Positions 15,509 to 54,071 of a stretch of 64,000 nt of DNA are shown in pieces; the stretch's first letter is position 1, and each line of letters starts with the position of its first letter. Under the pieces are notes generated by a model. The model saw nothing but the letters and a program-made list of their open reading frames with translations, did no database searches and had not been told where the DNA came from. This DNA is from Cephalotus follicularis. Taxonomy: Eukaryota; Streptophyta; Magnoliopsida; Oxalidales; Cephalotaceae. Position numbers and translations under genes: made by a program. The stretch is taken from positions 430,169 through 494,168 of the forward strand of contig BDDD01000532.1 in the NCBI GenBank assembly GCA_001972305.1, in the 5' to 3' direction.

Positions 15509-16693
15509 TTTGGGGTACGGAAGCTAATAACAATTTAAGTAAAGATAAATAACAGATAAATGGATAAAATAAGAGCAAAGCCAGATAATCGGAAAGACAC
15601 AAACAAAGATATAAAGATAAAGCATAAAAGTAAATAGAAAAGCACAAACAAAGAAAATAAAAGGAAAGGTAGGAGAAGAGATATTTAAATACTGGAATTA
15701 AAATAATAATTATATTGACTGAAAATATATAAATGATTAGTAGTAAATTAAATACTGAATTGAAATAACTGGAATTGGAAATACTGAAAATAAATTCAAT
15801 TAATTGAAAGCAATTGACATGAAGAAGTTAAATGGAAAAGGTTTCACGTTAGATGGATCCCTTTGAATACTTGAATTTAAGACAGTTGATATGGAAAAGG
15901 CACCACACTACCTAGCTGTGAACTGCCTGCTAGATGGTTCTTTTCAATACTGAAAATAAATGACTGAATTAAAGTTTAAGTTACCACTCTGTCAGACGGT
16001 ACAACCGTCCTTATAGATGGATCTTAAACATAATTGATAAATTACTGTAATGAAACACAAAATTTAAATAACTTTCTCCACACCGTCAGACGGATAAACC
16101 GATCATGTCGATGGATAAGTTAGAACAATTGATAAATTGTTTTGACTTTATTCAAAGAATCTTACCGGAATAGTTGTCAGAAAACTCAATAAACAGTGGC
16201 TAAACTCAATGAATAGTTATCACAAAACTTAATGAATAGTTAACATAATACTCAATCAATAGTACAACATAAATAGTAAAACATAACAATACTTAATATG
16301 AAATATATACAAAGGTTACATAAATTAAAAATTTACATGGACGTGGAGTATGTACAGAACTTACTTGAAATGTTTGCCGGAACTTATGTCGGAATGCTTA
16401 CAATACTTCAATACTGAATGGTTACAACACTCAAGTGTTTACACTTAGGCTCTAAGTGTGTACAACTAGAGAGAAATGGTTGAAGAATTGAAAGACTTGT
16501 GAAAGAGGAACTAAACTTGTAAGAAAACAAGCTTAGGAAATCAAGACTTGTTGAATGGGTTTACTATTTGTGAATAGTAACTTGTCTCCTGAGTGCTTGA
16601 AATAGTGAATGGCGGCTATGACGTTGACGTTTCTGCTGCAATTTGTTGGTTTTCATACATATAGCAGATTTATCTCTTTTTGGCTTTTCCTTT
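15509..16693 (-). promoter_or_regulatory. Viral intergenic region, copy 1 (TATA segment deleted)
   Basis: Aligns by eye with 42590-43735 and 51925-53165. These should hold the viral promoter, transcript leader and polyadenylation signals. In the other two copies a TATATATA box lies between GTCTTAGTAT/GGCTTAGTAT and AAGTCTTG/AAGCCTTG (43578-43586 and 52998-53006). Here about 55 bases containing it are missing near 16545-16560, apparently lost between short direct repeats (GACTTGTT). Several short inverted repeats around GTCAGACGG / ACCGTCC are visible. No protein is encoded. Confidence 0.7.
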
Positions 16694-17891
16694 TTACTTT
16701 TGGACTGGGAGAAAATCGTCATAATCTGCTAAGTTTATGGTGGAATTGCTAGATTCTTTTTCGTCATCTTCACTAAGAGTATCTTCTTTGTCGTCATCCT
16801 CATCAAAGGTATTGTCTAGAGCTTCTTGTAATTTTTGATTTGCTCTTGTAGTTCTTTTTTAGTAGATGATGATACGATAGTAGATTGTATCTGGCTCTTT
16901 GTCAGGGTAAATTGTTGATCTTGATGACTTTTTGATCTTAGTGATATCATAATGGTTTCGGAAGTACATTTTGATAAATCATATTTTTCCACCATTTTGT
17001 CCAAAATTGTCGATGGAGACTGGGTATTGTTTGAGGAGATTCTTCAATAGTATAATCCCAGTACATTATCCATGATAACTTACAATGGATAAAGAATGAT
17101 AGCATTGTTGGACATAAGGTCAATGTTTCAGTATGCTTTGTAAAGGTGTTGAATACTTCTATAATGGGAAGGGGTAAAATTTCTTCAATAGGCCCATAGA
17201 AGCACCACCAGTCTACAAACCAATAGGGAATAGTTTGTTTTTTAAATGTTTTATCAAAAGAGAAAAACCATGAATGTCTATCTTCAATGTTTTGGAAAAG
17301 GAAAGTATTTTTCCAAGCAACCATGTAGTAAAAATAGTTATAAATAGGTAAATCAAATGATGTCGCAAATTGTTTGAAATAATGAGGATTTTGTCCCCAT
17401 TCTGAAAGGGTTAAAATCTTTTGAATGAATGCTGATGCATGAGTGATTAATCCTGGGTTTTTTAGATCAGATTTTGGGTTAATTTTTATGGAATCATTAT
17501 CAACGAGAATAAACTCATAATAAGTTTGGTTCTTTTGGGCATGGTTATTGTAATAATGTCAGTATGGATAAAAGACTCTTTTTGCAATGTCTAAAGGAGT
17601 TTGACAGTTTATCCTGAACTCGGGCTCGATGAAGAAAAGGAATTCAGTATATAGATTTTTTATGTGTCTATAAATGATTTTACTGGGATCTTGGGTAGAG
17701 ATTGAATTTGGCGAACCAGTATGAGTGATGTTTAATTTTTTTACAACATCTGAATACACAGTGGTTAATGATTTGGGAGGTGAGATAAGAGTTTTATCTA
17801 TTTGAGTGTTTGTAATGGTTGGGGGTAATTGTCTTTTTTGGAGGGAATAAGATTGTTTTGTCTTGAAAGGGGTATTTGATTTTGATGACAT
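16694..17891 (-). pseudogene. ORF2B, type B accessory protein of unknown function
   Basis: Starts at ATG 17891 (MSSKSNTPFKTKQSYS), about 50 bases after the end of the capsid ORF. Recognisable parts in order: a basic, Ser/Thr-rich N-terminus; FFIEPEFR; YYEFILVDNDS; ILTLSEWGQNPHYFKQF; then a tryptophan-rich block with HSWFFSF, PYWFVDWWCFYGP and FWTKWW. A Gln-rich segment and an acidic tail (DEDDDKEDTLSEDDE) follow. The tail is in the -1 frame relative to the upstream part, the same frame change as in the copy at 53166-54071. I remember similar tryptophan-rich ORFs beside florendovirus-like loci, but no function is known to me. Broken by frameshifts near 16980 and 17340-17560. Confidence 0.75.
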
Positions 17892-18314
17892 TGTTGCTGC
17901 AAAGAGAAAATACAGAGATTAGAAAAATGGAAATGGGATGTAAACAAATGATAATATTGGGTTCTAAGTTTTAGTTGTGTTACAAGTAGTGCCAATAATA
18001 CAATTATTACAATTACAGGTTTTAATATTTAAATTGTCAGAATTAGTTTCGGATTCTGAAGTATAGTTTTTTTATGGCCTGAATTTTTGTTGAGGAATTT
18101 GAGAAATAATCACTCTCTCCTTCATCAAGACTTTGGTTATCAATAATTTTAAATAATTGATTTTTATGACTTTCGGACAAATCTAGTTTTTTTATTTGCT
18201 TCCTAATTTTACAATATCTTGCTATATGACCTGGTTTACCACAATTGTAACAAGTTTTTGAATATGTTTGGAAATTATTTTTAAAATAAGTTTTTCGTTT
18301 ATTGGGTTTTCTAT
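17892..18314 (-). pseudogene. Capsid C-terminus with CCHC zinc knuckle (type B)
   Basis: Continues the capsid ORF of 25462-26925 after a 7.1-kb insertion. It encodes a basic stretch (RKPNKRKTYFKNNFQ), a canonical CCHC knuckle (CYNCGKPGHIARYC), a basic patch, and an acidic segment ending in a cysteine-rich CNCNNCIIGTTC before the stop. In unsplit florendovirus-like polyproteins protease sequence would follow. Here the frame ends and ORF2B begins. One frameshift lies near 18050. The TCTAT at 18310-18314 is the left target duplication of the insertion. Confidence 0.88.
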
Positions 18315-18640
18315 TGTAACACCCCCGGTTCTGAACATGGCTGAGCAAACCTCAGTATGGATATAGGATCATAAAGCAGTACGAAACAAAACAGATTACG
18401 AAATAGATCGGTTTCCAAAATCATAACAGTTACGAGATGATACCAAATAAAAACAGTTGCGAATCAAAACAAATACAAAACCGAACAGTGTCCGATTCAA
18501 AACAGTATTCAAAACTTCATAATACGAAATAAAACGTTTTACGAAACAGTTTACGAAATGAAACAATACAAATCTTTTACCAAAAAACGAACAATTCATA
18601 ACTAAACCAATTTATGCAAATTAAAAGATGCTCCGTCTCA
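18315..18640 (-). repeat. Left inverted arm of composite element
   Basis: Reverse-complement match, roughly 90% by eye, to 24785-25100 plus the outermost bases up to 25456. Relative to the right arm it lacks about 330 bases just inside the tip: it goes from GGTTCTGAACATGG straight to CTGAGCAAACCTCAGTA. Rich in repeated CGAAACAAAACAG-type units. Confidence 0.85.
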
Positions 18641-20268
18641 TAGGTATGCAGCACAAGGTCTCAAAAGCAATCCATCAATTGCAAGGATGTCCGAAGACAA
18701 AACTGAAGAGGCATGCGTATTGATCGATCGATGAATCATCATGAAGCCAGCCAAGCCACGCAACCAAAAATACCGTTTCAGCGCCCGTACGTATACCAAG
18801 CGAGAGGTTATCTGAACGAACCACAATTCAAGACGATGAATAGTCAAAGCCAAACGTGTGGAAACATCGAGAGAACCAATGCTTACATCGATAGGCGTGA
18901 TATAAGAATGAGTATAAACTCCTGGTGCGGATAATCAAGGCTGACGATCGAAACATCATGTATACAAAATGCACAGGCTCAAGGCACCATGAAGGCAAGT
19001 TACACATACTCATGTCTATCATGCGTACAAACGCCAACACACGCAGAAAAACATACACATAAATACGCACACAAACCTCGTGCAAGCACCACATTATGCA
19101 TTCATAATCGCTAAGCAAGCAGCAAGAAGTGCACATAATAGCATGTGAACAAACTCTTAATGTGGACAACGAATGCATCATCTGCCTAAAATGCACACAC
19201 TTGATACTATTAGGTTGTATTGCATAAGATGAACCATGGCCTTCACAAGGACTTACGTTTAACGACTTCATTATGCGACGGACATAACCTGTCCCCATAC
19301 ATCAACGTTTCGTTGTCACAAAGCGAGCAGTCAGTGCGGTTACAATTCTATCACCGAGCATCGGTGATCCGGTCCTGCAATATCGATCTCTCCCAAAGAG
19401 TAGACGATAGAGCTCGCATGCGTAAGGCTGATAGGATCACGTGTAGTGATATGAGTAACTCATCTGAAGATAAGCCAGAGAAGTAGAAAACTTCTTACTC
19501 AAAGCATCTGCAATCATGTTTGCATTATGCTGAGGAATTCATCAGCGTAATCATACTTTTTAATCGTCTCCACCGAGCTCTGCTCGAGGTTCGAATCTCT
19601 GTCTATAAAGATCTGCATAGGGCCGACATTCATTCACAATAGACGATGTCATCTCGACATAACTCTTATAGGCTAAAACCTTCAGTGTACTCCGCTAACG
19701 TTTCCACCAAATACTCAAACAAAAAGTACCGTACTGGTTGCCTAAGCCTCTTCTGACAATTCGTCACTGTCAACGATTCATCGCTGCGAAGCAGTACCAG
19801 AACATATACAAAAACCATAGAGTAGTTCCGCCAATGTATTTAAGGTGTTATATCAAATACATCATGCGCTGATAACTCATAAAGTTTAGAATAGCCAGGC
19901 TATAGCCCGCTAGAATCATGGCTCAGACACATCAATTAATATGGGTTATAGGGAAAGTATCGTCCTCACGGCTAACTCGGCCGCTACCCAAAACAAGGTA
20001 ATATCCTAGAATATCTCCGGCCTTAGAATCCATATCCTTACATCGTACTCTAATAACATAAGCCATTTATCTAGTAACCTTAAAAAAAATCTCACTATTT
20101 ATCCTACCATGTACCCATCTTACCGACCCCGGGGCATGCTACCGAACACATGACATGATGCAATGCATGATATGCAAGAGTTTAAAATCATTTTAAAACC
20201 ATTTTCCCTTTTCTTCAAAATCTTGAAAACAATTTACTTTAAAAGTCTAGAGAACCTTAAAACCAATC
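18641..20268. other. Non-coding interior of composite element
   Basis: About 1.6 kb between the left arm and the primer-site-like sequence at 20269. A 156-codon minus-strand open frame (18828-19298) shows no known motif and an uneven, Cys/His/Ser-rich composition, so I do not call it a gene. If the LTR at 20284 is a 5' LTR read on the minus strand, this would be the start of its internal region. Confidence 0.45.
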
Positions 20269-20280
20269 GCTGTGATACCA
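20269..20280 (-). promoter_or_regulatory. Primer-binding-site-like sequence
   Basis: The minus strand reads TGGTATCACAGC, one change from the tRNA-Met complement TGGTATCAGAGC, and lies three bases inside the LTR edge at 20284. This is where a 5' LTR would have its primer site, so the LTR to its right is read on the minus strand. Confidence 0.7.
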
Positions 20281-20283
20281 AAA

Positions 20284-23200
20284 TGTCATACCCGTTCCTG
20301 ACAACAACCGACATCCTAATGAGAACGGATATGACGATCCACATGACAACTTCCTTTCGGAAGTTGCCATATGGTTTTTATAACTTAAAACCGCTTCAAG
20401 ACTTTCCAAAACTATTCATAAAATTTAACTTTTCCAAAACTTTGAAAATTTTTCTAACTCTTAAATTTTTACGAAAATCGGGCATGTAGTATCTGTTTAT
20501 AGGACTATGCCCCCTGTAAAGAAAAAACATAGTTTATATACACACTCCCGAAGGAGGAATCAACAGTTTTAAAATGGGCTCAGCCCTCAGCAAACCACAA
20601 TTTTTAAAGCAGTAAACATAGGTTGGGCTCAGCCTCAACCATTTAATCCAAACATGCAAAACAAATATGTAATGGCTCAGCCATTTAAAAGTAAAACCAT
20701 AAAAGAAAAACCATTATATATAAACATAAGTAAATGCTAAATTAAATGTTGATGTAGTTATGCAATGCATGTGTTGAAACCCTGGTAGCATGCCCTGCCC
20801 ACGTGGTCCATCATCTACCGAAAAATAAACTCAACAATTGCTTACCATCTTGTCTTTATCTGGAAGGGAAAGAAAAGATAGGGGGTTAGTCCAAATGACT
20901 AAGTGAGTAGAAACATTAAATACATCTCCCATAAATATATACTGAATAGAAGGCGAAATAAAATAAGCTCAAAGTAGTATAAAAGTGAATCTACGGCAAG
21001 AAATAAAATCAATGATCACCAAAGAAATCAAGATCCAAAAGGATAATCAAATCAACTGAAGATATCAAGATCCATAACAAACCATGATCCACAAAGGATA
21101 TCGAGATCACAAGGGAATATAGAGATTCTCGATGTGTAAACGAAATCAACGAAAGGGATCTCGATACTCGACAAATGGCTCCACAATATAACATGAGTCA
21201 GAAATGAAAACAATATCATCGAAAGAGATCCACAAAGGTTTCAAGATCATCTCGATACTTAACAATCGAATTCCACAAATGTGACCATAGACATTAACAA
21301 GGCTCCATAAATGAAACATTCGAACTTAACAACGAAGTCCACGAAACGAATATCAAAGTCAAGACAGAAATCAAATACATGAGAGTCAACAACAAATCCA
21401 AGTATCTGAATATCAACTCAAAGATACGATCATAAATAAAATATCAAACATCAAGAATGTAATATGTGCCCAAATAATCATAAACAACAAAAATATAAGG
21501 GGATGTTGGTACCAATCCTGTCACTGTCTCATATCCCCGCCAAATCACATGGCGACATATCATATCCCCGTCAAATCACATGGCGTCATAACATAACCGC
21601 TGCAGCAATAAGATAGGCCAATAGGCTACAGGATGTGATCATCATCCATCATACACCGGTGCAGAGTGCCTATGGTAAGCATAACATCCAAACCTCGAAC
21701 GAGGGGCCGGCATATACCGCACGGACCCTAGCCCTCGCCGAGAAAACCCGCACGCACACTCAACCTCATCTGAGGGACCCGCGTGCAATATATATCAACA
21801 ACCCAAACACAGTCCAATAGGAGGGTAATAGAGCAGCTCTGCTGCACTCACACTCAGCATACCATCATAGACAATAGTATGCCGCAGAACCAGGAATGGA
21901 ACCCGGGGGTAGTTTCCACATAACACCCTATCATAGACCAATGGGCCTGCTAAGTACAGTTGAGCGTCGAACATATACCACTCCTTGGACCGGTAATACA
22001 TATCCATAATCACGGTACCCAGCATCAGAATATAAATAGTATAACCATATAACAAGTCACAAGTGTGAGAAGGTGACCAAGTCACCCAGAGCATCGAGCA
22101 TATAACCGCTCGGAATCACATCACAATCATGAATACGTCACAAAAGACAACTGGATACAATTTCTGAACAATAACCCAATCATAAGAAAACCGGGCACAT
22201 ATGAACAACATGACTCTCAAGTAATGAAATAGAGAAAATGAAGGTCCAACGAAAAAGTATAAAGGCACGTCGCCACATAACAACCCTTTTTAGCAAAAGA
22301 TAGGAATTGCTCAATGGTATCAACAACAATGCTCAAGTATAACAATAAAGGAACCAATCCAAATAAACAAATCCGGCTCTCAATAGCCATCTCATGATAG
22401 AACCAAAAAGGGCACATACCCAGCAACAAAACTCAAACACGACGATACGAATCTAGAATGAATATAACAGTGATAACAAAAATAATATATAAGTCCGCAG
22501 GAGCCAATGCGGATACGACATCGCGAGGTGAAATGAATATACAATCACAAGATCTCATATCAATATGAACATTCAATCGGAATACCAATAGAGGGCTCAA
22601 AGTAAACGATTAAGGAATCGATTTCAATTCAACTAACAACAAGTCATATCAATATGAACATTCAATCGAATACCAATAAATGGTTCAATCAAAACAATAA
22701 TGGAATCATCATATAACAAGGGCTATCAACCAGTCAAATAAATCACAAACGTAAGAATAACAATTAAGTATACATATCCATCATCAACGGATTTCAAAAT
22801 CAAATAAGATAAAGGAAGGAGATGTACTACTCACAAATTCAATGCCCATTTCTATAACGAACTAACCCCTCGAAGCTTTGAATCGACTATCGGATTCCCG
22901 TCATCGTTTCGAAACTCTATCAACCGTCACACTGCATAAACAATACATATCGGTTACTTCCTACACATACGCAATTAACACTATTACTCACCGGAGCTTT
23001 GGCCAATTTCTGGTCAACCTGCCAAAGTTCCGACGACACCCAAAGCAACCTCTAAAACAACGGATCAACCCACATTATTGATCAAAACTCACGGCGACTC
23101 GCCCGGAAACGGGCAGCCACCATCGGCAGTGAGTTTGACTCACTGAGTCAACTCACCGGTCAACCAACAATTTAGGCCGCTTCGCAAAAAAGTCACAAAA

Positions 23201-23708
23201 CGACCTGGTCTACACGTCTCCGCCCAAGACTCGCCGAGAATCGGCGGCTGCCACCGCGCCAGAGCTCCGGCCGAGACGCCATTGCTTCAGTCTCGCCACC
23301 ACTAGCCTCCACAAGGTCCGGTCTACGCGTTGGTGACCGAGACTCACCGGGAATCACCGCCAAAAGTGGCGGCAGAGGCGACAGCGAGTCAACTCGTTCA
23401 GTTGTCTCCACCGTCAACTCTGGCTGAATCACGCCTCAACCACCACTGAAATGGAAAGAGGTGGTCTTTTAGGCCATGACCGGCCCAACCTGCGCTCAAA
23501 ACGGCGGCGGAGGAGAGCCGGCAGTGTCGGCAGGCGAAGAAGAAAAGAAGAGAAAGAAGAAAAAAGAGGAGGAAGGAGGCTTACCGGCGGCTGAAGGATA
23601 TTTTTTTTATTACATATAATATTATTAATAATACTAATATTCTACTTGCGTTTTTTACCCGCTCACGTGTTTTGCAAATTAGCCTCGTAAATGTGACGGG
23701 GCGTCACA
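20284..23708 (-). mobile_element. LTR (about 3.4 kb) inside the composite
   Basis: Bounded by TGTCATACCCG and GGGGCGTCACA; read on the minus strand it is TGTGACGCCCC...GGGTATGACA. Related throughout to the plus-strand LTR 28073-31768 plus 40692-40757, for example the ATGGGCCTGCTAAG and GAGCAGCTCTGCTGC landmarks. A GC-rich, GAGTCAACTC-containing block lies at 23050-23540. The flanks (CCAAA and TATGC) do not match, so it is not a simple solo LTR. It fits a 5' LTR with an adjacent primer site and no identifiable 3' partner. Confidence 0.7.
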
Positions 23709-24784
23709 TATGCAAGGGATCCTGTAGAATCCACTTGCCAAACAGAATGACGTGTACGGCACTATACAATCAATTCCAATAGTGAATCTTATCTTACAAT
23801 AACTAGAGCGACTCATACGCCCCAAAAGGATCCATATCCTACCCTCATGATACATATTAAGAGAGACGCCGTAGACTAATCACACCGCTACGGAAGTGTC
23901 ATGCCCTCGTGCCAGGCCTACGACATGCCTATGGTACCTCCATAGGTAGGAAACAAATATATTCTCAGTATTTCAAAAATAATGATTTATCAATAATCAT
24001 TTCAAAACATATTTCCAAACATATCCAAAATCATAATCATATCCAAGTTCAAAAATTTATATACTTCCAAAGGTGAAAGTCCTGTTCATTTAATCAAAAT
24101 CAATATACTTTCAATGGTGAAAGCCATACCCGTTTAACATATTTTCAATAGTGAAAGTCATGCTTAAATTATAAAATCGGTAATATTTAACTTATTAATA
24201 AAACAGATTTTATTCAAATATAACCAAATATCCGAAAACGAAAAATTCTATTTCAAAATATACACACATATATCTGAACATAAATCATAACACAGTAAAA
24301 CAATGTTTAATTTCCAATGAAATCAGAGGAGTTCATCAAAAGGGATACATCGGTACTAAAAGCATTATTCATTTCAATAAAATCAGATGTCCAATAACGA
24401 AGGTGTCCGTACTTAAAACAAAACTGAATTCATTTAAACAAAACCAAAGAAGAAGTCCAAAACAAGGAATCCGTTCGTATTAAAAGCAAGACATAATTTA
24501 TTTCAACAAAATCAACTGAATTTATACTATTGTAAAGTCGATAAGAGTGTATTAAGAAGGAAAAGATCCATACCTTACGTAAACACCAAAATTATCCTCA
24601 AGAGAAAATCAAACTACCCTACGCAGCACTTCCGTTGCATATATGTATGTATTTAATTCGATATTGCATCTCCCAGTATAAGACATGGATTTAACAAAAG
24701 TTTTGGAAACTGATATGTTTTGATATATATATTTTTCACTTTATGCTGAATTGTGAATATATATATATATATATATATGATTTG
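23709..24784. other. Non-coding stretch with AT microsatellite
   Basis: Lies between the LTR and the right arm. It is AT-rich, with dispersed repeats containing TTTCAA(T/A)GGTGAAAG (24070-24150) and a run of about ten AT units near 24757-24778. No coding potential was recognised. Confidence 0.5.
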
Positions 24785-25456: not shown

Positions 25457-25461
25457 TCTAT

Positions 25462-40686: not shown

Positions 40687-40762
40687 CACGTGGAGGTTTC
40701 CGAAAGGAGGCTTGTCACGTGATGGTCACATCCGTCTCGGTAGGGACGGGTGTGACAAATCA

Positions 40763-42129: not shown

Positions 42130-42589
42130 TGTTGCTGCAAAGAGAAAATACAGAGATTAGAAAAATTGAAATGGGATGTAAACAAAAAATAATATTGGGT
42201 TCTAATTTTTAGTTGTGTTACAAGTAGTGCCAATAATACAATTATTACAATTACAGGTTTTAATATTTGAATTGTCAGAATTAGTTTCAGATTCTGAAGT
42301 AGAGTTTTTTATGACCTGATTTTTTGTTGAGGAGGTTGAGAAATAATCACTTTCTCCTTCATCAAGACTTTGATTATCAATAATTTTAAATAATTGATTT
42401 TTATGATCTTCGGACAAATCTAGTTTTTTTTATTTGCTTTCTAATTTTACAATATCTTGCTATATGACCTGGTTTACCACAATTGTAACAAGTTTTTGGA
42501 TATGTTTTTTGAAAATCATTGTTGGATTTTTGGAAATTATTTTTAAAATAAGTTTTTCGTTTATTGGGTTTTCTATAGTATTTTGGTTT
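42130..42589 (-). pseudogene. Capsid C-terminus with CCHC knuckle, copy 2
   Basis: Encodes SKPKYYRKPNKRKTYF, the knuckle CYNCGKPGHIARYC, and the acidic and Cys-rich end (CNCNNCIIGTTC) before ORF2B, exactly as at 17892-18314. At 42589 it is fused to intergenic sequence, so movement protein and capsid core are absent from this unit. A frameshift lies near 42425. Confidence 0.85.
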
Positions 42590-43773: not shown

Positions 43774-45438
43774 TTACTTTCTCATCCACTGATTGTGGGT
43801 TTTATTTTCTGAGAATGTTTTGTAGTAATTAGGGTTTTCAAATATATCTTTTTTATAAAAATTTATCAACGGGTCGTAATCTGTTTGATCTTTGAAACTG
43901 ATGTGAATTTGGGTTTGAAATGAATAATTTTTTTTGTATTTGATCTTCAGTGACAAGCCTGAAGTTGAAAGGAAGGAAGTAATGGTTCCAGTTAGTAGCA
44001 ATTGTTTTTGCTTTCCAATGGTGAATTTGTGTTTGAAGAGGACGGGAGCAATCCCAAAGTCCCATGTTATTGAGTTGTGGGATATGGTTGTATCCTTGAA
44101 TTTATATTAGATGTCTGGCAGGTTGTATGTCGTAGATGAATTCTGGAGTTGTGGATGTGATTGTTGCTTCGATGCTTTGGAATCCTCGAAACATCAGATC
44201 TGATCCAATAGTTGCTATCTTTCTTCCAAAACATTGGAAGTGGCTATAATCAGTGAAAATGATTTGTTGAAGCATTCCATGGTCCATGAGGAATTGTGGA
44301 GTAATCGTTTTGTTTTGGAAAATGTATTCTTTGGGTCTTGATAGATCCCAACAGGCTGTGTAAATTGTATATGCCAAATGGCATGTACAAGAATAATGTT
44401 CTAATGGTACGTTTCGACAAGTGTCTAGTATTTCCGGGCACTCAATTTGTTGGTTATTTGGAAAATAGTAAGATAAGTGGATAGCAGACATTTTTGGAAA
44501 TTCAACAGGATTTGAAAGAATGTGTCTAAGGAAGTCTTGAATTACCTGAAAATTGTTGAGTACATTATGGTGTCTCAATCTTTGAATGGTTTCTATGACT
44601 CCTTGAAGGTTGTATTCTCTAAAATTTTTGAAAATAGTGTTTGGGAAGAAGAATGCTCTAGAATTTCTTATCTCTATCTCAGTGGGGGATAAAGATTTTT
44701 TCCCACTTTCTTCTATCTCAGTAGGAGATGGAAGTTTTCTCTTTCTTGTTGTTTCTGTTGCTCTGTCAAATGGCAGTGTTTCCATTGTTGTTGGTTTTTC
44801 TACGAATGAATGAAAAATTGAAGTCCTTTTATATGGTTCTGGATGAGTGGGTTTATCATAGTTGAATAGTAATGGAATCTTCACACACAATGTTTCCATG
44901 CGCACAAGATAAAATTTAATAGCTTCGTACACAAGAATCTTATCAAGCACATGCAATAATTTTGAATATTTTTCTAATGTTTGTGTCACATTTTTCTTTG
45001 TCTTAGTGAGAGACAAAGTGTTACTCATACTTTTCTTTGCCTCAGTGGGAGACAAAGTGTCATTCATATTTTTCTTTATCTCAGTGGGAGATAAAGTGGC
45101 TTTAATGGATTCCTTTTCCTGTAAAACAAATGAGAAGATGGTTTTGCAGATAAAGGTTTTTGGAAAAAAATTTCTTTTATGTATAGAATGTTTTGCACAC
45201 AAAGTGTTATCACGTATACATAAATAAAATTCAATGGTTTCACACTCAAGAAATTTTTTAAATGTATATAATGATGTTAAAGGGTTAAGTGTTCCATTTC
45301 TTTGCAAATTTCTATTTTCTATCTTAATGGGAGGTAGAAACTGGTAACGGGTTTGATTGACTTTGAAAAGTAGATATAATTTCCTGCAATCTTGAAAAAG
45401 TTTGTTCATATCTTCAGAAAATATTAAATTAGCTTTTA
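43774..45438 (-). pseudogene. ORF2A, type A accessory protein with SPTEI repeats
   Basis: A long frame on the minus strand runs to an in-frame TAA at 44102, then resumes for about 80 codons in the same frame and further in another, ending near 43774. It has no known enzymatic motif. Visible features: five SPTE/SLTK-type repeats (TLSPTEIKKN, TLSPTEAKKS, KLPSPTEIEES, SLSPTEIEIRNS), and a duplicated module (LECETIEFYLCIRDNTLC and LVYEAIKFYLVRMETLC). A conserved middle follows (NNFQVIQDFLRHI ... CPEILDTC), then a Cys/His-rich CTCHLAYTIYTACWD. The frame is entered from RT sequence because RNase H is deleted at about 45440. Role unknown. Confidence 0.7.
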
Positions 45439-45835
45439 TCAATCGAAAATGATGAATATGGATTCAAATATATCATTCATGATTTTTTGAAATTCACTGG
45501 GTGCGTTTTTTAAACCGAATGACATTACATTCCATTCATAATGACCAAATGGAGTAGTGAACACAGTTTTATATCTATCATTTTCTTGAATTTGTATTTG
45601 CCAAAATCCTGATTTTAAATTAAATTTTGAAAATAATTTTGTTTCAGTTAATCTTTTTAATAAATCTTTTTTGTTTGGAATAGAATGTCTAATACATTGT
45701 AAAGTAAATGTTTTATAATTTATGACTAATCTTGGTGTTCCTGAATTGACATAAAAGGGTGCACAATTCCAAAGGGGTTTGCTAGGCCTAATTAATAATT
45801 CATGAATTAATTCATAAGTCATTTAAATTGGTCTT
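45439..45835 (-). pseudogene. Pararetroviral RT N-terminal half (type A)
   Basis: Best-preserved viral RT segment here: PSKPLWNCAPFYVN, RLVINYKTF, PIPNKKD-like, LFSKFNLKSGFWQI, TPFGHYEWNVM and FGLKNAPSEFQKIMNDIF, all typical of Caulimoviridae. It ends just before the catalytic YIDD motif, where a deletion joins it to ORF2A. No catalytic aspartate pair remains, so it is inactive. It follows the protease in the same orientation. Confidence 0.92.
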
Positions 45836-46930
45836 ACTTTAGTGGGAATATTTTGTTCTGTAAAATCTTTTCCATATGGTAAGGACTCCATATGTCGTTT
45901 CTTGTGCCAAAAGGTATTGGGAAGATCTGAACAAAGTTTGTTAATTATGTTATTTTTTAATAAGTAAATTTTTTCTTTTATTTGTGAGGTTTGTAATTGT
46001 TGTTCAAGTTTTTTATTTGATATTTCTTGTTTCATAAAATATAAATGATTTTCTTTTATTTTCATCAAATTTACAGAATGTTCTTTAAATAAAGAAAATA
46101 TTTTTAAAAGATTAATATCTTTAGTAATGAGTTTTTCATTAAAAGCAAATAGAATTTTTCGTTGAAATATTTTTGTTGTAATTTCTTCATTTGTTATTTT
46201 AAATGGTTTAATAACTTCTAAAAATGGTTGAACTATGATTATTTCTATGTCTAAGTCTTTGACTAAGATAAATGGTTGTTTTATGCAAACATCTTCATTA
46301 TAGATATGGACATCAGAAATTTTGAATTTAACTCTAAGATTTTCACCGTTAGCAGTGGATAATCTTTGTTTAGTTTTTTCAAAGTATTTTGTTGGAATTA
46401 ATCCTTCCTGTATACAATTCATTTGTGCTCCTGGATCAATTAGAGCAATTGTTTGGAGTTTAAAAGAATCTTGTATTGTGATGGTAATGTTAATGTGCTA
46501 TTTTTGATAAGTTATTCTTTCTATTAAATGAATAAATTTGGTTGATGTTTCTTCTTGGTCTTCTAAATTAATTTCTTCATCAGAAGAAGAGGAAGTCGAA
46601 TGTTTTTGTAATAATATTTGTTCTAAATTTATAATCTGTTTCTTAGTTTTTTGTTTAAATTTTTGTAGTTCTTTTTTAATATCTTTAATTTCTTTTTGTA
46701 AATCTTGTAGAGTTATATTTTATGATGGTGGATTTTCAAATTTTTGAAATATTTTTTGAAATGTGTATGGTTGACTAGTTGATGTTGATGGTTCATTTGT
46801 TATTAAATCTTTTAATTTTAGTAAATATTCTCTTTTTAAATATGGGTCATCAATTGTATCGACTAAATTTAATAATAAATTTGATTCTTTCTGTTTGTGA
46901 GTATTTATCATACAAATAGTTTTGTTTTTA
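45836..46930 (-). pseudogene. Protease and upstream spacer (type A, copy 2)
   Basis: On the minus strand: ICMINTHKQKESN and DTIDDPYLKREYLLKLK, a coiled-coil-like LQDLQKEIKDIKKEL, then the retropepsin. Its active-site triplet is DPG (ALIDPGAQMNC) where copy 1 has DSG, which probably abolishes normal geometry. QEGLIPTKYFEKT and a Val-for-Gly change in the IIVQPFLEVI motif follow. The spacer joins directly to the movement-protein linker without capsid or knuckle, as in copy 1. A stop lies near 46720. Confidence 0.85.
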
Positions 46931-48087
46931 TTATCTTGAATTTTTAGTGTGTCGTTTTCTTTAATAATTTTTTCTGTAGAAAAATGGTTATTTTTATTTT
47001 CTTCAAACACATTTTCTTTCTCAAAATGTTTTTTGCTTTCTAAAATCTCTTCTTCAAAATTCTTTTCATCTTCAAAATATTTTTTATTTTCTTGTTGATT
47101 TTTATAAATTGGTAAATAATCGAAAAACATAACATGAGCTTTGATTTTAATCATGTACTCATACCATGCTATTCGAATATTATTTTGTTCAATCTCAGAA
47201 TATTTTTTAAAGAATCTATATCTTTTACGTAAATATTTTTCTTGAAGAAAATCTTTTCTTATTAAGTCTTTATTAATTTCAAATGGTTCATCAATTATAA
47301 TTGCCATAAGCTGAGAAGGAGGTTTCATCTCAGAATATGTTGGGGGAATAAGTTCACTAATTTTTTGAGAATCTTGAGAATTATCTTGTGTATAAATTCC
47401 TTTTAAAATACTTGACTGACTTGAAATTTCAGATAATTTAGTTTTAGTATCAAAATAATTTGTTTTTCCAGATATAATACTAGAAGTTGAAGCTCTATGT
47501 GGTTGAAATTCATAATTTTTATCTAATTTTTCATCACAAATATTTAAATAATTAAAAAATTTCTTTTAAATCTTCTGGTGTTGAATGAGTTTTGATAGTT
47601 TTATCAAACCTAATTTTTACTAATCCTTCTTCATTTTGAGTTATTGAGTGTAAAGAAGTGTTTTCAATGTTTTCTTGGTTATGTGCAATAGTGTCGGATT
47701 GTATGGACCAACCCTCAGGAATATTGATATCGCTCCATTTATTTTTTTGTGGGATTAAAATGTTTGAATCATTTGTGACACATTTCATCATTGTTGTTTC
47801 ACCTTTTAACAAATTTACTAACGATTTTGAACAAATCGAATTAGTAGCTTTGTAATGAACATGATGAATTATAGCAATAATTTCGGATCTAGGTAATATA
47901 TTGTAACCATGGAGTTTAATGTTAATCTTTAATGTTTCTAAAATATTTTTATCTGTTAAGGAAATGGTTAAATCTGGATACCCATCAAAATAGACAGGTC
48001 CATTGCCTAGACTTGTTTCAATGGCTCTAATTAAGGAATCATCAAAGTTTAAATGTCTGGCATTTCAGAGACATGCCAAGATGGAAG
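46931..48087 (-). pseudogene. Movement protein and linker (type A, copy 2)
   Basis: Nearly the same sequence as 26950-28072: VYFDGYPDLT, the HGYN...GSEIIAIIH core, LLKGETTMMKC, SDINIPEGW, then FEINKDLIRKDFLQ and MFFDYLPIYKNQQENKKYF. A one-base frameshift lies at about 47556. It differs from the type B unit only downstream: at about 46925 it leads into ICMINTHKQ and the protease, where type B leads to capsid. TGTTT at 48088-48092 is the duplication of the LTR that separates it from the ORF1 start at 51683. Confidence 0.88.
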
Positions 48088-49519
48088 TGTTTTGTAACGT
48101 CCCGAATTTCATAAATAATTATTATGAAATTGGTGCGTGTATAGTTGTGATAAAATCGATGGAGCCCGGAGTAATAAAAAGGCATTACGCATTTAAGTCA
48201 TAATCGTGTTAGATAAGACGGCTAATAAAACCTATTTTTAATGCGCGACAATAAAGCCCAAATGTTCGCATTTTTATTGTGATTATTTTGGTGGTTGTTT
48301 GGGTAATTTATGTCGCGATTCGCGGAAAAATCGGGACTCATACCTTAGTATTTTACAAGAAAATACTAAGGAGGAAGCAAAATAATAAAAGAAGAAGGGA
48401 GAGAGACACGGGCGCATAGCGCGCCCGTGCGAAGAGGAACCTGCAGACGAGAGAGAGGGAGAGACTGGGAGAGACAGCGGGAGAGAGAGGGAGAGAGGGC
48501 GCCGGAGACGACGCCGGCGCCAGCCACGTGACCGGGAGAGGACGGCGGACCACCCAAGCACGCCTACCGCCGGTAAGCTCTTCCCCTTTCCCCTTTTTTC
48601 TCTTCTTTTTCTTCTTCTTCCTCGCCACTGTCGTGCCTCCGTCGAGCGTTTCTCGGCGCCGTTATAGTCGCGGATGGCGTGGGTTATGGTGTAGAAGGCC
48701 CGTTCTACCCATTTCGACCATCAGTGAGGCGTGATTTGGCCGGAATCACTTGGCCGAGTCGACTCACTGCCGCCTGAGACCGCGCGTTTGGCGCCGAGTC
48801 TCGGCGAGTCACGGGCAGTGACGTGCATAACTGGTGAATGTGTGGCACTTTTGGGTGGTGATCAGACCTGTTGAGGTCCGGCGAGTTGACTCAGTGAGTC
48901 ACAACTCACTGCCGGCCGTGGCGCGGCGTTCGACGCTGATTCACGGCGAGTCTTGACCGGTTTTGAGTAGACCGTTCAATGTGGAACCCGTTTATGTGTG
49001 TTTCACAAGCTGGATGCGTTGGCCGAAATCCGGTCGACGTTTCGGCGACGGCAATATTTTGCGTGCGTTGATCATAATGAAATGTGTTGTATGTGCAGTG
49101 TGTGCGGCAATTGGATTTGGCAGTGGAAAGGATCAATTAGCAAGAACCGGCTTCGGTTCAACGGTTATTGGAAAGGTTCGGCAATTAAACATGCGGCTCG
49201 ACTGTGCTGTTGCTACTGCGATTCCTAACTCGGAATCAGAGGTAGGGGTAATAGTAGGGGATTTATACTTATTTATTTGATTTCAAGAATGATGTTTATC
49301 ATTGATGAAATGCATGAACTTTGTGGATTGAATTGCATGCACGTTTTAGGATGATTTTCCCTTGGTGTGTGAATGGTGTGATTTGTGTTAGGGTTGCTAT
49401 GAGTAGCTAACCTGCCTTGCATATTGTGATTAAATGATTGTGGATCGAATTGCATGTGTAATTATGCATGTTGATCTCCTGGTATTGAACGTGTTGAAGA
49501 AGATGTTTCCGATCTTCTC

Positions 49520-49850
49520 TAACCGTCGATGCTTAGATGATAAGCGTTGACGCTATGGACTGTTACGTGTAGGTGTGTACACTGACTTCGCGATAAACAT
49601 CGACGCTTAAGGAAAGCGTTGACGCCCTGGTTTGAATGTGCGTAGCGATGGACACGTGGATGTTGACGCTTGAGGTCCTACCTCAAAGCGTCGAAGCCAA
49701 AGTAATGAGCGTCGACGCTCAAGGATCCTTACCTTGAAGCATCGACGTTAAGGGCAATTGTTGACGCCTAGGGTTAAGCGGCGATGCTTAAGTGACTAAT
49801 ATGAACGATTTGGCGCCTAGAGGTTAGGTGTCGATGTCGAAAGGGTCGGG
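49520..49850. repeat. Palindromic GCGTCGACGC minisatellite
   Basis: About ten degenerate copies of AAGCGTCGACGCTT spaced 20-40 bases apart. The best is the 16-bp palindrome TGAGCGTCGACGCTCA at 49706-49721. It shares the CGTCGACG core with the GACGTCGACGTC cluster of the Tekay LTRs although the LTRs are otherwise dissimilar. Confidence 0.8.
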
Positions 49851-49889
49851 TTGCATTTTGAGCATATGTTTGCTTGCATATTCTTGTGG

Positions 49890-50545
49890 ATTCGTCGAGC
49901 TTTCCTCGCCTTGTACCGGTTAGCGTCGATGTAGGTATGAATTGAACTGTGATCTGAATTGTGAATTGAGATGTGATTGAATTCTAAAGTGTTTTATCAT
50001 TTTAGAAGTGCATACATGATTTTATAACAAATCATTATTTTACACGAAAATGTATATTTGTTAAATGTATATTTTCGAAGGATTGAAACGTGATTTCAAA
50101 GACTGTTTACATTTTGAATAAATGTATTATTTCAAGTATTTTATAACTTATGAATTACTTGGAAAGGATTGATTTTTGGATTGATTGAGCTTTCCTAGCA
50201 CCACGGGACGGTTAGCTGTGTGCTTTCCTAGCTCGGGGCCGGTTAGCATCAATGATTGAATTGTTTGATTGATTGTGATTGTTACGCTGTTAGTGCGGTG
50301 ACGGAGGTTGTCACTTACACTAATGGCAGGTTGTGCTCTAGGGGCCAAGAGATGGCTAGGGACACCACACCGGATGGTCTTCCTCCGCTATGTACCGGTT
50401 GACATCCACACTATGAGCTATCCTCCGCCTATGTGCCGGTGAGACTCATTTATTTGTTGAACTTTCCTCCGCTACGTGCCGGTTAGTGTCAATTATTGAT
50501 CGAGCTTTCCTCCGCCTATGGGCCGGTTAGCATCGACGTGAGATA
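49890..50545 (+). repeat. Dispersed short repeat GAGCTTTCCTCCGC...GCCGGTTAGC
   Basis: Seven copies of a roughly 32-base unit (consensus GAGCTTTCCTCCGC, then TATGTGCCGGTTAGCATC) at about 49900, 50188, 50208, 50378, 50418, 50461 and 50503, separated by unrelated bases of varying length. They are confined to this LTR. Confidence 0.75.
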
Positions 50546-51342
50546 ATACTAACCTACGGGTGGTGGTTATCGAATACTGATTGAATTGATTGGTCCTTAG
50601 TGACATGACTGATGGATTGTGTTGATGTAGCCACTTGGCATGGTTGCGTAACTATTGATCGAGATACACATACAAATACATATTGTATATATATTGTACT
50701 ACATCATTATGCATTCATTACATGATTTACATTATTGTTGATCCTGAAAGGTATTTTATACTTTCTCTACTTAGCCGAGTGAGGACAAAGGCTAACCCCC
50801 AACAATTTCATATTGACAGGGGCAATCGAACAAGTGCTGCTGAAGCTGTGTTGGAAGCTTCTTTCCTGAATGTTGTTTTAATTGTATTGTGTTGTAATAA
50901 TCATACTCGTGTTTTAAGAGAATGATGAGACGTGCTTGTTAAGAATTATCAGTTGGATATTGTATCAATTGGTTATGGAAATTATGGAATCTTGTACTGG
51001 ATTAATGTATAATGGTTTATGACTTTACTAATTTGGGATAATGTATTATCGTATTTGATGGATAATCATTAAGTATGGATTCTATATTTAATGAAATATT
51101 GTATCGACATGTCTTAATCACGCTCCGTTTTGAGGGCAATTAACAATGAAATATCGTATGTTGGTAACACGTAGTATGGGATGCGTGTTACGTTGTTAAT
51201 TTGGCTTATAATTGAATGCTTCCGCAAGTAGTTAATCGTTTTGAAAGTTTTAAATTTTTGCGTAAAATTGTATAAGCCGGATATTATGTTGATTTCTACC
51301 ATTATTATTGTTGTTGTTATGGAAACGGGGTGTGACATGTTT

Positions 51343-51683
51343 AATCCTTATCTTGTTAATGGTTTAATGGTTACTTGAACTAAAGCAAAATGAATATATT
51401 TAAAGTTTTTAGCTAATTCTTTAATGGTTTTCTCATCTAATAATTGGATATTTTGTTGAGTTTTAGTAATTTTTACAGTTTGTTCAATTGTTTGAATTCT
51501 TTCAGTAAAATTAAAAGGATTAAATGGATTATATTTATAAATTTCTTTGTTTGAAATCTTTGGGGGTTTCCAATTTTGCCATTGTTTTATTCTTTCATCT
51601 AATTCTTTATCTCTATTTGAATTATTACTAGTTTCTGAATCACTATATGATCTCGAAGACATAGCTCCACATAATTTATTCAT
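51343..51683 (-). pseudogene. ORF1 N-terminus and movement protein start (type A, copy 2)
   Basis: ATG 51683 opens MNKLCGAMSSRSYSDSE, DKELDERIKQWQNWKPPK, then YKYNPFNPFNFTERIQTI and YIHFALVQVTIKPLTR, the beginning of the movement protein. About 111 codons are open, making it the cleanest of the three ORF1 starts. It continues across the solo LTR into 48087. The primer site lies about 230 bases upstream. Confidence 0.87.
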
Positions 51684-51911
51684 ATTAATTAATTTTTAAA
51701 GTTTCAGTTTCACCACGTGCAAATAATTTGATCCCTCTAGCCCACTAAGAGTGTTTCGATGATCTACTGGGACTTACACTCCGTCTGCCTTATCACCCCA
51801 ATTCTCTTACAGTTAGAAACTGATCGAACCAGTGCAGATGCACTCTATCCAGACGCTTAGAAACTTAGTCTTTAAAGTTTAATTAATATTCTTAAACTAT
51901 CCAGGGTTTTT

Positions 51912-51924
51912 GGCTCTGATACCA
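51912..51924 (-). promoter_or_regulatory. tRNA-Met primer binding site of pararetrovirus
   Basis: Minus strand TGGTATCAGAGCC, a perfect match to the tRNA-Met complement used by Caulimoviridae, followed by AAAAACCCTGG. It defines the genome origin for the type A unit downstream. Confidence 0.92.
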
Positions 51925-53165
51925 TTTGGGGTACGGAAACTAATAGCAATTTAAGCAAAGATAAATAATAGATAAAGGGATAAAATAAGAGCAAAGCCAG
52001 ATAATCGGAAAGACACAAACAAGAAAGATATAAAGATAAAACAGAAAAGCACAAAGAAGAAAATAAAAGGAAAGGTAGGAGAAGAGATATTTAAATACTG
52101 TAATTGAAATAATAATTATATTGACTGAAAATATATAAATGACTGGTAGTAAATTAAATACTGAATTGAAATAACTGGAATTGGAAATACTAAAAATAAA
52201 TTCAATTAATTGAAAGCAATTAATATGAAGAAGTTAAATGGAAAAGGTTCCACGTTAGATGGATCCCTTTGAATACTTGAATTTAAGACAGTTGATATGG
52301 AAAAGGCACCACACTACCTAGCGGTGAACCGCCTGCTAGATGGTTATTTTCAATACTGAAAATAAATGACTGAATTAAAGTTTAAGTTACCACTCTGTCA
52401 TGCGGTACAACCGTCCTTATAGATGGATCTTAAACAGAATTGATAAATTACTGTAATGAAATACTAAATTTAAATAACTTTCTCCACACTGTCAGACGGA
52501 TAAACCGATCATGTCGATGGATAAGTTAGAACAATTGATAAATTGTTTTGCCTTTATTCAAAGAATTTTACCGGAATAGTTGCCGAAAAACTCAATGAAC
52601 AGTGGATAAACTCAATGAATAGTTATTAGAAAACTTAATGAATAGTTAACATAATACTCAATCAATAGTGCAACATAAATCGTAAAACATAACAATACTT
52701 AATATGAAATATGCACAAAGGTTACATAAATTAAAAACTTACATGGACATGGAGTATGTACAGAAATTACTTGAAATGTTTGCTGGAACTTATGCCAGAA
52801 TGCTTACAATACTTCAATACTGAATGGTTACAACACTCAAGTATTTACACTTAGGCTCTAAGTGTTTACAACTAGAGAGAAATGATTGAAAAATTGAAAG
52901 ACTTGTGAAAGGGGAACTAAACTTGTAAGAAAACAAGCTTAGGAAATCAAGACTTGTGTGTTGAACTTCTCTTCCCGAATGAGTAATGAAGGCTTAGTAT
53001 ATATAAGCCTTGTTGAGTGGGTTTACTATTTATGAATAGTAACTTGTCTGGTAGAGTTACTGTTCATGAATAATATCGTGTCTCCTGAGTGCTTGAAATA
53101 GTGAATGGCGACTATGACGTTGACGTTTCTGCCGCAATTTGTTGGTTTTCTTACATATAGCAGAT
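51925..53165 (-). promoter_or_regulatory. Viral intergenic region (copy 3, most complete)
   Basis: Lies between ORF2B (higher coordinates) and the primer site. A TATATATA box on the minus strand is at 52998-53006, with a repeated flank (GAATAGTAACTTGTCT, TTCATGAATAATAT) upstream. The remaining leader of about 1 kb is non-coding, with several GTCAGACGG / CCGTCTGAC-type short inverted repeats that could fold. It is shared with the region following the type A unit at 42590-43735. Confidence 0.75.
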
Positions 53166-54071
53166 TTATCTCTTTTTGGCTTTTCCTTTTTTCTTTTGGA
53201 CTGGGAGAAAATCGTCATAATCTGCTAAGTTTATGGTGGAATTGCTAGATTCTTTTTCGTCATCTTCACTAAGAGTATCTTCTTTGTCGTCATCCTCATC
53301 AGGAGTATTGTTTAAAGCCTCTTGTAATTTTTGATTTGCTCTTGTAGTTCTTTTTTAGTAGATGATGATACGATAGTAGATTGTATCTGGCTCTTTGTCA
53401 GGGTAAATTGTTGATCTTGATGACTTTTTGATCTTAGTGATTTCAGAATGGTTTCGGAAGTACATTTTGATAAATCATATTTGTTCCACCATTTTGTCCA
53501 AAATTGTCGATGGAGACTGGGTATTGTTTGAGGAGATTCTTCAATAGTATAATCCCAATACATTATTCATGATAACTTGCAATGGATAAAGAATGATAGC
53601 ATTGTTGGACATAAGGTCAATGTTTCAGTATGCTTTGTAAAGGTGTTGAATGCTTCTATAATGGGAAGGGGTAAAATTTCTTCAATAGGTCCATAAAAGC
53701 ACCACCAATCTACAAACCAATAGGGAATAGTTTGTTTTTTAAATGTTTTATCAAAAGAGAAAAACCATGAATGTCTATCTTCAATGTTTTGGAAAAGGAA
53801 AGTATTTTTCCAGGCATCCATGTAGTCAAAATAGTTATAAATAGGTAAATCAAATGATGTCGTAAATTGTTTGAAATAATGAGGATTTTGTCCCCGTTCT
53901 GAAAGGGTTAAAATCTTTTGAATGAATACTGAAGTATGAGTGATTAATCCTGGGTTTTTTTTATCAGATTTTGGGTTAATTTTTATGGAATCAGTATCAA
54001 CGAGAATAAACTCATAATAAGTTTGGTTCTTTTGGGCATGCTTATTGTAATAATGTTAGTTTGGGTAAAAG
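53166..54071 (-). pseudogene. ORF2B C-terminal two-thirds, copy 3 (type B)
   Basis: Encodes the tryptophan-rich block (HSWFFSF, PYWFVDWWCFYGP, FWTKWWNKYDL) and the Gln/Lys segment. In the -1 frame there follows the acidic tail (DEDDDKEDTLSEDDE) and a basic end (KKKGKAKKR). The N-terminus is cut off at 54071 by the Tekay insertion. A Trp-to-stop change lies at 53564. The flank AAAAG at 54067-54071 is the presumed left target duplication; its partner lies outside the window. Confidence 0.75.

What the first reader, a model, noticed from the sequence alone, without database searches (positions are those of the whole stretch)
15509..54071. Two complementary viral genome types alternate in one array: a probable bipartite florendovirus-like pararetrovirus
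Seen: type B units run MNKLC - movement protein - capsid - CCHC - stop - ORF2B - intergenic region (41154 to 16694, nested insertions removed; partial copies at 42589-41381 and 54071-53166). Type A units run MNKLC - (movement protein) - linker - protease - RT - ORF2A - intergenic region (51683 to 42590; partial 15268 to 9745). Capsid and knuckle are never followed by protease, and protease is never preceded by capsid. The linker-to-ICMINT join occurs in both type A copies and the knuckle-stop-ORF2B join in two type B copies, so these are unlikely to be chance deletions. Both types share the intergenic region, primer site and 5' coding part. Known, from memory: some endogenous florendoviruses were proposed to be bipartite. 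Inference: this locus holds both components, joined head to tail.
Basis: partly seen in the sequence, partly recalled or inferred. Interest (0 to 1): 0.88.

Follow-up and report, generated by a model that had tools for sequence, protein, structure and literature searches.

The report
Fossil plant virus in two halves
A plant genome, most probably that of the pitcher plant Cephalotus, carries many ancient copies of a reverse-transcribing virus split into two complementary pieces, one with the coat protein and one with the enzymes; this split design was already reported in grape, rice, sorghum and beet, but here it can be compared with a close unsplit relative in the same genome.

Summary
On the minus strand, type B copies read MP - capsid - CCHC - ORF2B - intergenic region (IR); type A copies read 5' part - linker - protease - RT - ORF2A - the same IR. 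The rest of the genome (1.58 Gb, very probably Cephalotus follicularis) repeats both: of 29 other capsid loci read, 21 have ORF2B downstream and 0 linker or protease; of 28 other protease loci, 0 have capsid upstream. Among 150 x 150 scored matches, capsid and protease lie within 20 kb 21 times (0.57 expected). A divergent sister lineage in the same genome is unsplit (MP-CP-PR-RT-RH-ORF2). Against it, B stops and A starts within about 35 nt inside ORF1, and A's exchange of ORF2 for ORF2A falls at the ORF1/ORF2 boundary. Bipartite endogenous florendoviruses are known (Geering 2014); this case adds a protease-free B, an A-specific ORF2A and an RT-dead A class with mostly in-frame deletions. Corrections: the stop just after the knuckle is decay; neither minus-strand A copy in the window has RNase H. 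Genus placement against named references and real complementation are untested.

The parts
53153..54071 (-). Type B, partial: ORF2B tail, ending at 54071 where an element of gypsy type (named by eye) begins
   Evidence: 91.9% to 15131-17574; element repeat starts at 54072; ORF2B frame 53567-54055
51684..53152 (-). Intergenic region and leader between B and A, with tRNA-Met-like primer site at 51913-51924
   Evidence: 95.2% to 42590-43734; exact TGGTATCAGAGC
51345..51683 (-). Type A copy: N-terminal part of ORF1 (MNKLC...)
   Evidence: 95.9% to 40809-41172
48093..51337 (.). Insert in the type A copy, 5-bp target duplication
   Evidence: flanking homologies overlap by 5 bp (40809-40813)
46925..48092 (-). 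Type A copy: movement protein and DUF7588
   Evidence: Pfam MP, DUF7588; 95.3% to B 26942-28072
45823..46924 (-). Type A copy: linker (ICMINT...) and aspartic protease
   Evidence: Pfam RVP; A/B homology ends at 46925/26942
45439..45822 (-). Type A copy: reverse transcriptase, truncated at the active-site region; no RNase H follows
   Evidence: Pfam RVT_1, profile 55-141 of 205
44102..45463 (-). Type A copy: ORF2A with SPTEI repeats
   Evidence: open frame of 453 aa; 39-bp tandem repeat; 12 of 12 homologues found are Cephalotus
42590..43734 (-). Type A copy: 3' intergenic region
41378..42589 (-). Type B, partial: capsid C-terminus, CCHC knuckle, second Cys cluster, ORF2B
   Evidence: 93.3% to 17139-18318
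40809..41172 (-). Type B main copy: N-terminal part of ORF1
28073..40757 (.). Nested insert of gypsy type (by eye) in the type B copy, 5-bp target duplication
   Evidence: flanking homologies overlap by 5 bp (48037-48041)
26942..28072 (-). Type B main copy: movement protein and DUF7588
   Evidence: Pfam; 95.3% to A
25418..26898 (-). Type B main copy: capsid (DUF7746, caulimovirus coat domain), frames broken
18319..25417 (.). Insert (bounds approximate) between capsid and knuckle, with an inverted repeat 18339-18633 / 24789-25100 (89%)
16647..18318 (-). Type B main copy: CCHC knuckle, second Cys cluster, ORF2B (frame 16947-17558)
15509..16646 (-). Intergenic region after the type B copy; primer-like site at 15497-15508 (1 mismatch)
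   Evidence: 94.1% to 42590-43537
14464..15286 (-). Second type A copy: about 46 N-terminal residues, then DUF7588 twice; no MP core
   Evidence: 15131-15286 within 15131-17574 ~ 51546-54071; 14464-14696 and 14718-14950 ~ 47053-47303
9623..11595 (-). Second type A copy: linker, protease, RT 99 nt short, no RNase H found
8498..9703 (+). Third type A fragment, opposite strand: RT end, RNase H, ORF1 stop, start of ORF2A
   Evidence: Pfam RT_RNaseH
5725..5948 (+). Further type A fragment: ORF1 end and ORF2A start
   Evidence: 93.8% to 9294-9517

Best explanation
The array is an integrated, decayed head-to-tail concatemer of two genome components of one caulimovirid of florendovirus-like design. 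Component B carried MP, capsid with CCHC and ORF2 (ORF2B). Component A carried protease, RT and RNase H plus a separate ORF2A. Each had its own copy of the intergenic region with primer site and, by analogy, promoter and RNA ends. Most likely an unsplit ancestor gave two deletion forms that broke ORF1 at the same point; each replicated and was packaged with the other's proteins, and recombination through the shared IR kept their ends alike. Shown: two recurrent forms, recurrent complementary break points, shared IR and 5' part, purifying selection on capsid, ORF2B, protease, RT and RNase H pieces, an unsplit sister lineage, clustering of A and B in the genome. Inferred: mutual complementation, joint packaging, recombination, concatemers formed before or during integration.
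For: CP and PR are multi-copy (150 matches scored out of 496 and 1617 first-look candidates). 21 of 29 non-window CP loci have ORF2B downstream, 19 of the 20 measured spacings are 759-782 bp; 0 of 29 have linker/PR downstream on the same strand; 0 of 28 non-window PR loci have CP upstream, 26 have the linker and 22 MP/DUF7588. The capsid side starts at one point in 12 of 12 B loci aligned. 21 CP-PR pairs within 20 kb against 0.57 expected. At C64 a whole unit (of the A-delta class) lies between IR copies (period about 5990 bp) and is followed by B, leaders 94.8% alike over 1049 columns. Window IRs are 94-95% alike but 71-76% to IRs of three other loci over the stretches of 590 columns or more: A and B are matched by strain. 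MP core of 4 A and 17 B loci on different contigs is 91.6% alike (68 pairs), B-B 92.3% (136 pairs). Unsplit relatives L074, L075, L076: B homology ends and A homology begins -10 to +19 nt apart measured with the upper A copy, up to +34 nt with the lower one. dN/dS: CPm 0.11, ORF2B 0.11, PR 0.10-0.15, RT 0.19, RH 0.08. The Cephalotus copies, split and unsplit, form one clade (support 0.998) against 30 proteins that I picked from the non-Cephalotus hits; the A copies form a clade beside the unsplit ones (0.916).
Against: Only top-ranked, window-like copies were read (30 loci from each search), so rarer unsplit copies of the same lineage could be missed. 8 of 29 CP loci show no ORF2B within 1.5 kb and one spacing is 459 bp; 2 of 28 PR loci lack the linker and 6 lack MP/DUF7588 in the flank; 7 of 12 B loci lack the last stretch before the break. 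Only 7 of the 28 PR loci show RNase H in the flank read. Neither minus-strand A copy in the window has RNase H or a whole RT. In the junction search the top hit (C714) and about 20 others run on past the capsid side, to query 136-167, each with one or more stops, and were not read one by one. Gene models P0111 and P0124 join capsid to linker and were not located. An unsplit cousin exists in the genome and might have been a helper. Tandem A/B arrays could have been homogenised after integration.
Confidence: 0.77

Rival explanations
1. A and B are two defective, satellite-like deletion derivatives that each depended on an unsplit helper virus (the sister lineage or an extinct one), not two halves of a self-sufficient pair.
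For: An unsplit sister lineage sits in the same genome; A-delta copies lack a working RT and were still amplified, so replication in trans did occur.
Against: The two unsplit copies with PR that were read are about 25% divergent in PR; the part of their IR that was fetched matches A/B IR only over 65-86 nt (L076) or not at all (L075); A-full and B together hold every domain, each under constraint; A and B share IR and MP with each other more closely than with the unsplit lineage.
Confidence: 0.15
2. The array held one ordinary unsplit virus and the two types arose by deletions after integration, multiplied by tandem or segmental duplication.
For: The locus is a heavily rearranged tandem array with nested transposons. 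Redundancy of flanks was not tested.
Against: The same two structures recur on many contigs with mean dS of 0.22-0.51 between copies, by piece; B lacks what A has.
Confidence: 0.02
3. Three segment kinds, not two: A-full (PR-RT-RH-ORF2A), A-delta (PR, dead RT, long fused ORF2A) and B.
For: Of 9 distinct loci with a shortened RT (one is the window's), 7 are short by a multiple of 3, and the two others (422, 424 nt) are sister copies; 3 of the 4 loci measured run on into ORF2A without a stop; one frame is 1330 aa without a stop (L046); PR in A-delta has dN/dS 0.10.
Against: 4 of the 7 in-frame loci carry 1-3 stops. A-full and A-delta interleave on the PR tree, so the constraint on PR may have been inherited from A-full and the deletions may be recent and repeated. 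The class 'full' was set by RT columns present and includes L041 and L055, which one search shows to be short. dN/dS of the RT remnant is 0.55, near relaxed. Defective genomes can keep frames open only because they are young.
Confidence: 0.17

Closest known systems
Bipartite endogenous florendoviruses of Vitis, Oryza and Sorghum (Geering et al. 2014, PMC4241990)
   Same: Component A lacks CP (sometimes MP too), component B lacks RT; near-identical IR (>90%) and MP (>87%); compound A+B insertions; 5.5-6.9 kb components; a further ORF at the 3' end (passages and text parts 1-2 of 7).
   Different: In Vitis B keeps the aspartic protease and part of RNase H1, and its ORF2-like part is a C-terminal extension of the polyprotein, homologous to ORF2 of A. 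Here B has no protease, ORF2B is a separate ORF, and ORF2A shows no detectable likeness to ORF2B. Here an RT-dead A class exists too. Host order differs (Oxalidales).
Unsplit florendoviruses such as Lotus japonicus A virus, and Vitis vinifera A virus as possible unsplit parent of Vitis vinifera B virus (PMC4241990; PMC10377300, passages)
   Same: Gene order MP-CP-AP-RT-RH then ORF2 is that of the Cephalotus unsplit cousin (L076, ORF2 of about 410 aa); the pair cousin/bipartite mirrors the Vitis pair.
   Different: The cousin is about 25% (nt, PR) away from A; no named florendovirus sequence was available for comparison.
Florendoviruses of sugar beet reported as bipartite (cited in PMC10377300)
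   Same: Reported bipartite organisation (one sentence seen).
   Different: Original paper not held (identifier recalled); details not compared.

Membership tests
Caulimoviridae | 30K movement protein, caulimovirus-type coat domain with CCHC, aspartic protease, RT and RNase H, no integrase | tested here: met
   Pfam MP, Caulimovir_coat_dom, RVP, RVT_1, RT_RNaseH, CCHC read by eye in translations; no integrase among the Pfam hits of the viral pieces scanned, not searched for otherwise
Caulimoviridae | tRNA-Met primer site | tested here: met
   exact TGGTATCAGAGC at 51913-51924 (motif recalled); same motif in L071, L072, L076, not found by that scan in L040 and L075
Florendovirus (genus) | ORF1 MP-CP-AP-RT-RH1 followed by ORF2 of 45-58 kDa | tested here: met
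   Met by the unsplit cousin L076 by order and size (ORF1 frames broken, 410-aa ORF2); split between A and B in this lineage
Florendovirus (genus) | Monophyly with named florendoviruses in an AP-RT-RH1 tree | not tested
   no named reference genomes held; a PR tree with 30 database proteins without virus names was made
Florendovirus (genus) | ORF2 homologous to that of other florendoviruses | not tested
   no reference ORF2 available; Pfam gives nothing significant
Bipartite florendovirus | Complementary components, A without CP and B without RT, at several loci | tested here: met
Bipartite florendovirus | IR >90% and MP >87% alike between A and B | tested here: met
   IR 95.2%, MP 95.3% in the window; leader 94.8% at C64; MP core 91.6% on average, 87.4-95.5, over 68 pairs on different contigs
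Bipartite florendovirus | Compound A+B insertions | tested here: met
   window, C64, C714, C9338; 21 pairs within 20 kb
Bipartite florendovirus | B retains aspartic protease (as in Vitis) | tested here: not met
   0 of 29 CP loci with PR downstream within 1.5 kb
Bipartite florendovirus | Non-redundant flanks of the copies | not tested
   host flanks were not compared
Bipartite florendovirus | Two components complement each other in infection | not testable with these tools
   -

The most novel reading that the evidence does not exclude
A pararetrovirus with three co-evolving genome segments: A-full (enzymes), B (movement, capsid, ORF2) and an RT-dead A-delta that was kept as a coding segment, its dead RT shrinking mostly by in-frame deletions so that protease and an expanded ORF2A stay in one reading frame.
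Probability: 0.17. Interest if true: 0.75.

Novelty: new variant of a known kind. Interest (0 to 1): 0.52.

Why it matters
A divided genome was reported as unique to a few endogenous florendoviruses among viral retroelements (PMC4241990), and its origin is unclear. Here an unsplit sister lineage and both components lie in one genome, so the split can be read to within about 35 nt: ORF1 was cut between capsid and protease, and the ORF1/ORF2 boundary is the other edge. Together with Vitis, the grasses and beet this points to a repeatable route to multipartite pararetroviruses. It also warns that predicted gene models can fuse neighbouring components into false unsplit genes.

Tried and rejected
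Unsplit virus of the same lineage: looked for by domain neighbourhood, pair distances and a junction query; rejected for the copies read. In one search (150 scored, list cut) most hits end near the capsid side of the query (121-135). The top hit (C714, 21-156, 73%) and about 20 others reach 136-167, each with at least one stop inside; C714 is a B|A tandem with the two genes 5.4 kb apart, the others were not read one by one. The 12 weakest capsid-side hits listed (47-59%) led to the unsplit cousin.

ORF2A as a relative of ORF2B: BLASTP E 0.077, hhalign probability 0.2-0.3%. One search is void: its alignments held protease. N-terminal alignments: score reached by 7 (in another register), 54, 64 and 256 of 2000 shuffles against B, 362 and 578 against the unsplit ORF2; longer pieces 201 and 144. 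Unresolved. Solved-structure search gave nothing credible (best E 0.43). The AlphaFold model of ORF2A had mean pLDDT 36.8 and was not used.

An RNase H abundance search did not complete. Searches that gave nothing useful.

Full report
Where it is. The window is G000:C532:430169-494168 of a 1.577 Gb, 9746-contig assembly. All 12 hits of the ORF2A protein and all 64 hits of the MP piece at E <= 0.001 are Cephalotus follicularis gene models, and two contig lengths agree (C714 362030 bp with P0166, C9338 13142 bp with P0149), so the host is very probably this pitcher plant (Oxalidales).

Observation. Self-comparison, translation and Pfam confirm the two unit types, the shared intergenic region and 5' part, and the insert-bounded gaps. 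Corrections are in the observation check: decay explains the stop straight after the knuckle, both minus-strand A copies are RT-defective and show no RNase H, and the plus strand holds further A fragments (5725-5948, 8498-9703), the longer one with RNase H, both with the ORF1 stop and the start of ORF2A.

Genome-wide recurrence. The capsid piece gave 150 scored matches of 496 candidates, the protease piece 150 of 1617. The 30 best of each were read with flanks of up to 1.5 kb; 29 and 28 are not the window. ORF2B lies downstream of 21 of 29 capsids and no linker or protease does; of the 20 spacings measured, 19 are 759-782 bp and one is 459 bp. No capsid lies upstream of the 28 proteases; 26 have the linker, 22 MP or DUF7588. 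L024 has a protease on the other strand next to its capsid. Seven of the 28 show RNase H downstream in the flank read (L050, L054, L057, L058, L060, L061, L065). An alignment of the MP-capsid junction in 12 chosen B loci, the window's B and its two A copies shows that the capsid side starts at one point in all 12; 5 of the 12 keep the part shared with A right up to it, 7 lack its last stretch. Among the 150 x 150 places, 21 pairs lie within 20 kb (one of them is the window's) against 0.57 expected for uniform placement, 12 of them on one strand; the nearest same-strand capsid-to-protease distance is 5.1 kb, where the unsplit cousin has about 1.4 kb.

Whole components. At C64 (L072) a unit of the A-delta class lies between two IR copies, period about 5990 bp, and B follows; their leaders and first 47 residues agree at 94.8% over 1049 columns. 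The window's IRs agree at 94-95% with each other but only 71-76% with those of C64, C714 and C9338 over the stretches of 590 columns or more; shorter stretches reach 71-92%. On different contigs the MP core of 4 A and 17 B loci is 91.6% alike against 92.3% within B (supports in the trees of that call are mostly weak). So A and B are matched by strain, which is what one virus with two components predicts.

The unsplit cousin. The junction query listed, besides B loci, 12 divergent places (47-59% identity; the list was cut). Three were read: L076 (C1577) shows MP-CP-linker-PR-RT-RH-ORF2 with broken ORF1 frames, L075 (C4761) linker-PR-RT-RH-ORF2, L074 (C340) capsid end and linker only. Their ORF2 is homologous to ORF2B (56-64%). 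Against these, B homology of ORF1 ends at L076 2329-2332, L075 743, L074 2299, and A homology starts at 2322, 762 and 2317 with the upper A copy (2335 and 777 in L076 and L075 with the lower one): the halves meet within about 35 nt. A-full homology ends at L076 4620, just before the ORF2 start (4638). B homology resumes at L075 3823, which is about the ORF2 start there (inferred from the protein alignment), and in L076 at 4838, inside ORF2. In A-full (C210: L065 and L077) ORF1 ends and a different ORF, ORF2A, starts at once in the same frame, with one stop after 250 codons in this copy, followed by the IR. On a PR tree (17 Cephalotus loci and 30 other proteins that I picked) all Cephalotus copies form one clade (0.998) and the A copies a clade beside the unsplit ones (0.916), so the split most likely arose inside this lineage.

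Selection. Pairwise dN/dS by piece: CPm 0.11, CPn 0.21, CPc 0.26, ORF2B 0.11, MP 0.30 (B) and 0.19 (A), PR 0.15 (class full) and 0.10 (A-delta), RT 0.19, RH 0.08, ORF2A in A-delta 0.38 (20 pairs), RT remnant 0.55. Both components coded for working proteins while they diverged. Because the classes interleave on the PR tree, the value for PR in A-delta does not prove that A-delta itself was selected; and the class full there was set by RT columns present, so that it holds L041 and L055, which are short.

A-delta. Loci with full RT have 549 nt between two anchors (six loci; 547 and 550 in two more). Nine distinct loci are shorter: 450, 441, 390, 390, 360, 327, 297 nt (short by a multiple of 3; four of these seven have 1-3 stops) and 422, 424 nt (not a multiple, sister copies). 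By my own binomial arithmetic 7 of 9 would be reached by chance with p about 0.008 if they were independent, which they are not fully. Two loci are longer (907, 1051 nt); the anchors failed in 11 of 31 records (L072 and L044 are one locus). Of four loci with the ORF2A anchor, three run on without a stop and one has two. One frame runs 1330 aa without a stop (L046).

Prior art. Geering 2014 (outline, passages and parts 1-2 of 7 of the text read) describes bipartite florendoviruses in Vitis, rice and sorghum; later works repeat it (passages of PMC9719215, PMC10377300, PMC5766536), and beet is cited in PMC10377300. Other listings are. Full-text searches for Cephalotus with caulimovirid or pararetrovirus terms gave one paper, unrelated by its title (listing only), and none. 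The finding is thus a further case, apparently of independent origin and unusually well bounded, with a protease-free B, an A-specific ORF2A and an RT-dead A class.

Noticed in passing
L044, L046, L047, L048, L049, L052, L056, L062, L066, L068, L069 (PR loci): A-delta class: A copies with deletions in the RT core, no RNase H in the flank read and, where seen, an expanded ORF2A; 7 of 9 measured short RTs are short by a multiple of 3 (which also counts L041 and L055).
   Followed up: partly
L074, L075, L076 (C340, C4761, C1577): Divergent unsplit caulimovirid lineage in the same genome, sister to the bipartite one; 12 places listed, 3 read.
   Followed up: partly
window 5725-5948 and 8498-9703, plus strand: Further A fragments in inverted orientation next to the lower A copy; the longer one has the only RNase H in the window.
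   Followed up: yes
C714 (L071) and C9338 (L031, L040): Public gene models P0166 and P0149 fuse capsid and protease, most likely by predicted splicing over a B|A tandem: annotation artefact.
   Followed up: partly
window 44992-45098: 39-bp tandem repeat coding for SPTEI-type units in ORF2A; by eye the number of units varies among gene models.
   Followed up: no
A loci with DUF7588 twice (e.g. L044, L046, L050, L058, window 14464-14950): DUF7588 (PF24496) is duplicated in tandem in A copies in which no MP core was seen; its function is unknown.
   Followed up: no
window 18339-18633 and 24789-25100: Inverted repeat of about 300 bp (89%) bounding an insert inside the type B copy, like a DNA transposon.
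   Followed up: no
window 54072-54573 and 61378-61879: Probable LTR pair, 95.2% alike, of the element that borders the upper B copy; could give a minimum age for the array.
   Followed up: no
window 32773-33039, 39143-39405, 7273-7492: 121-122 bp tandem repeat (about 2 units) in several elements of gypsy type.
   Followed up: no
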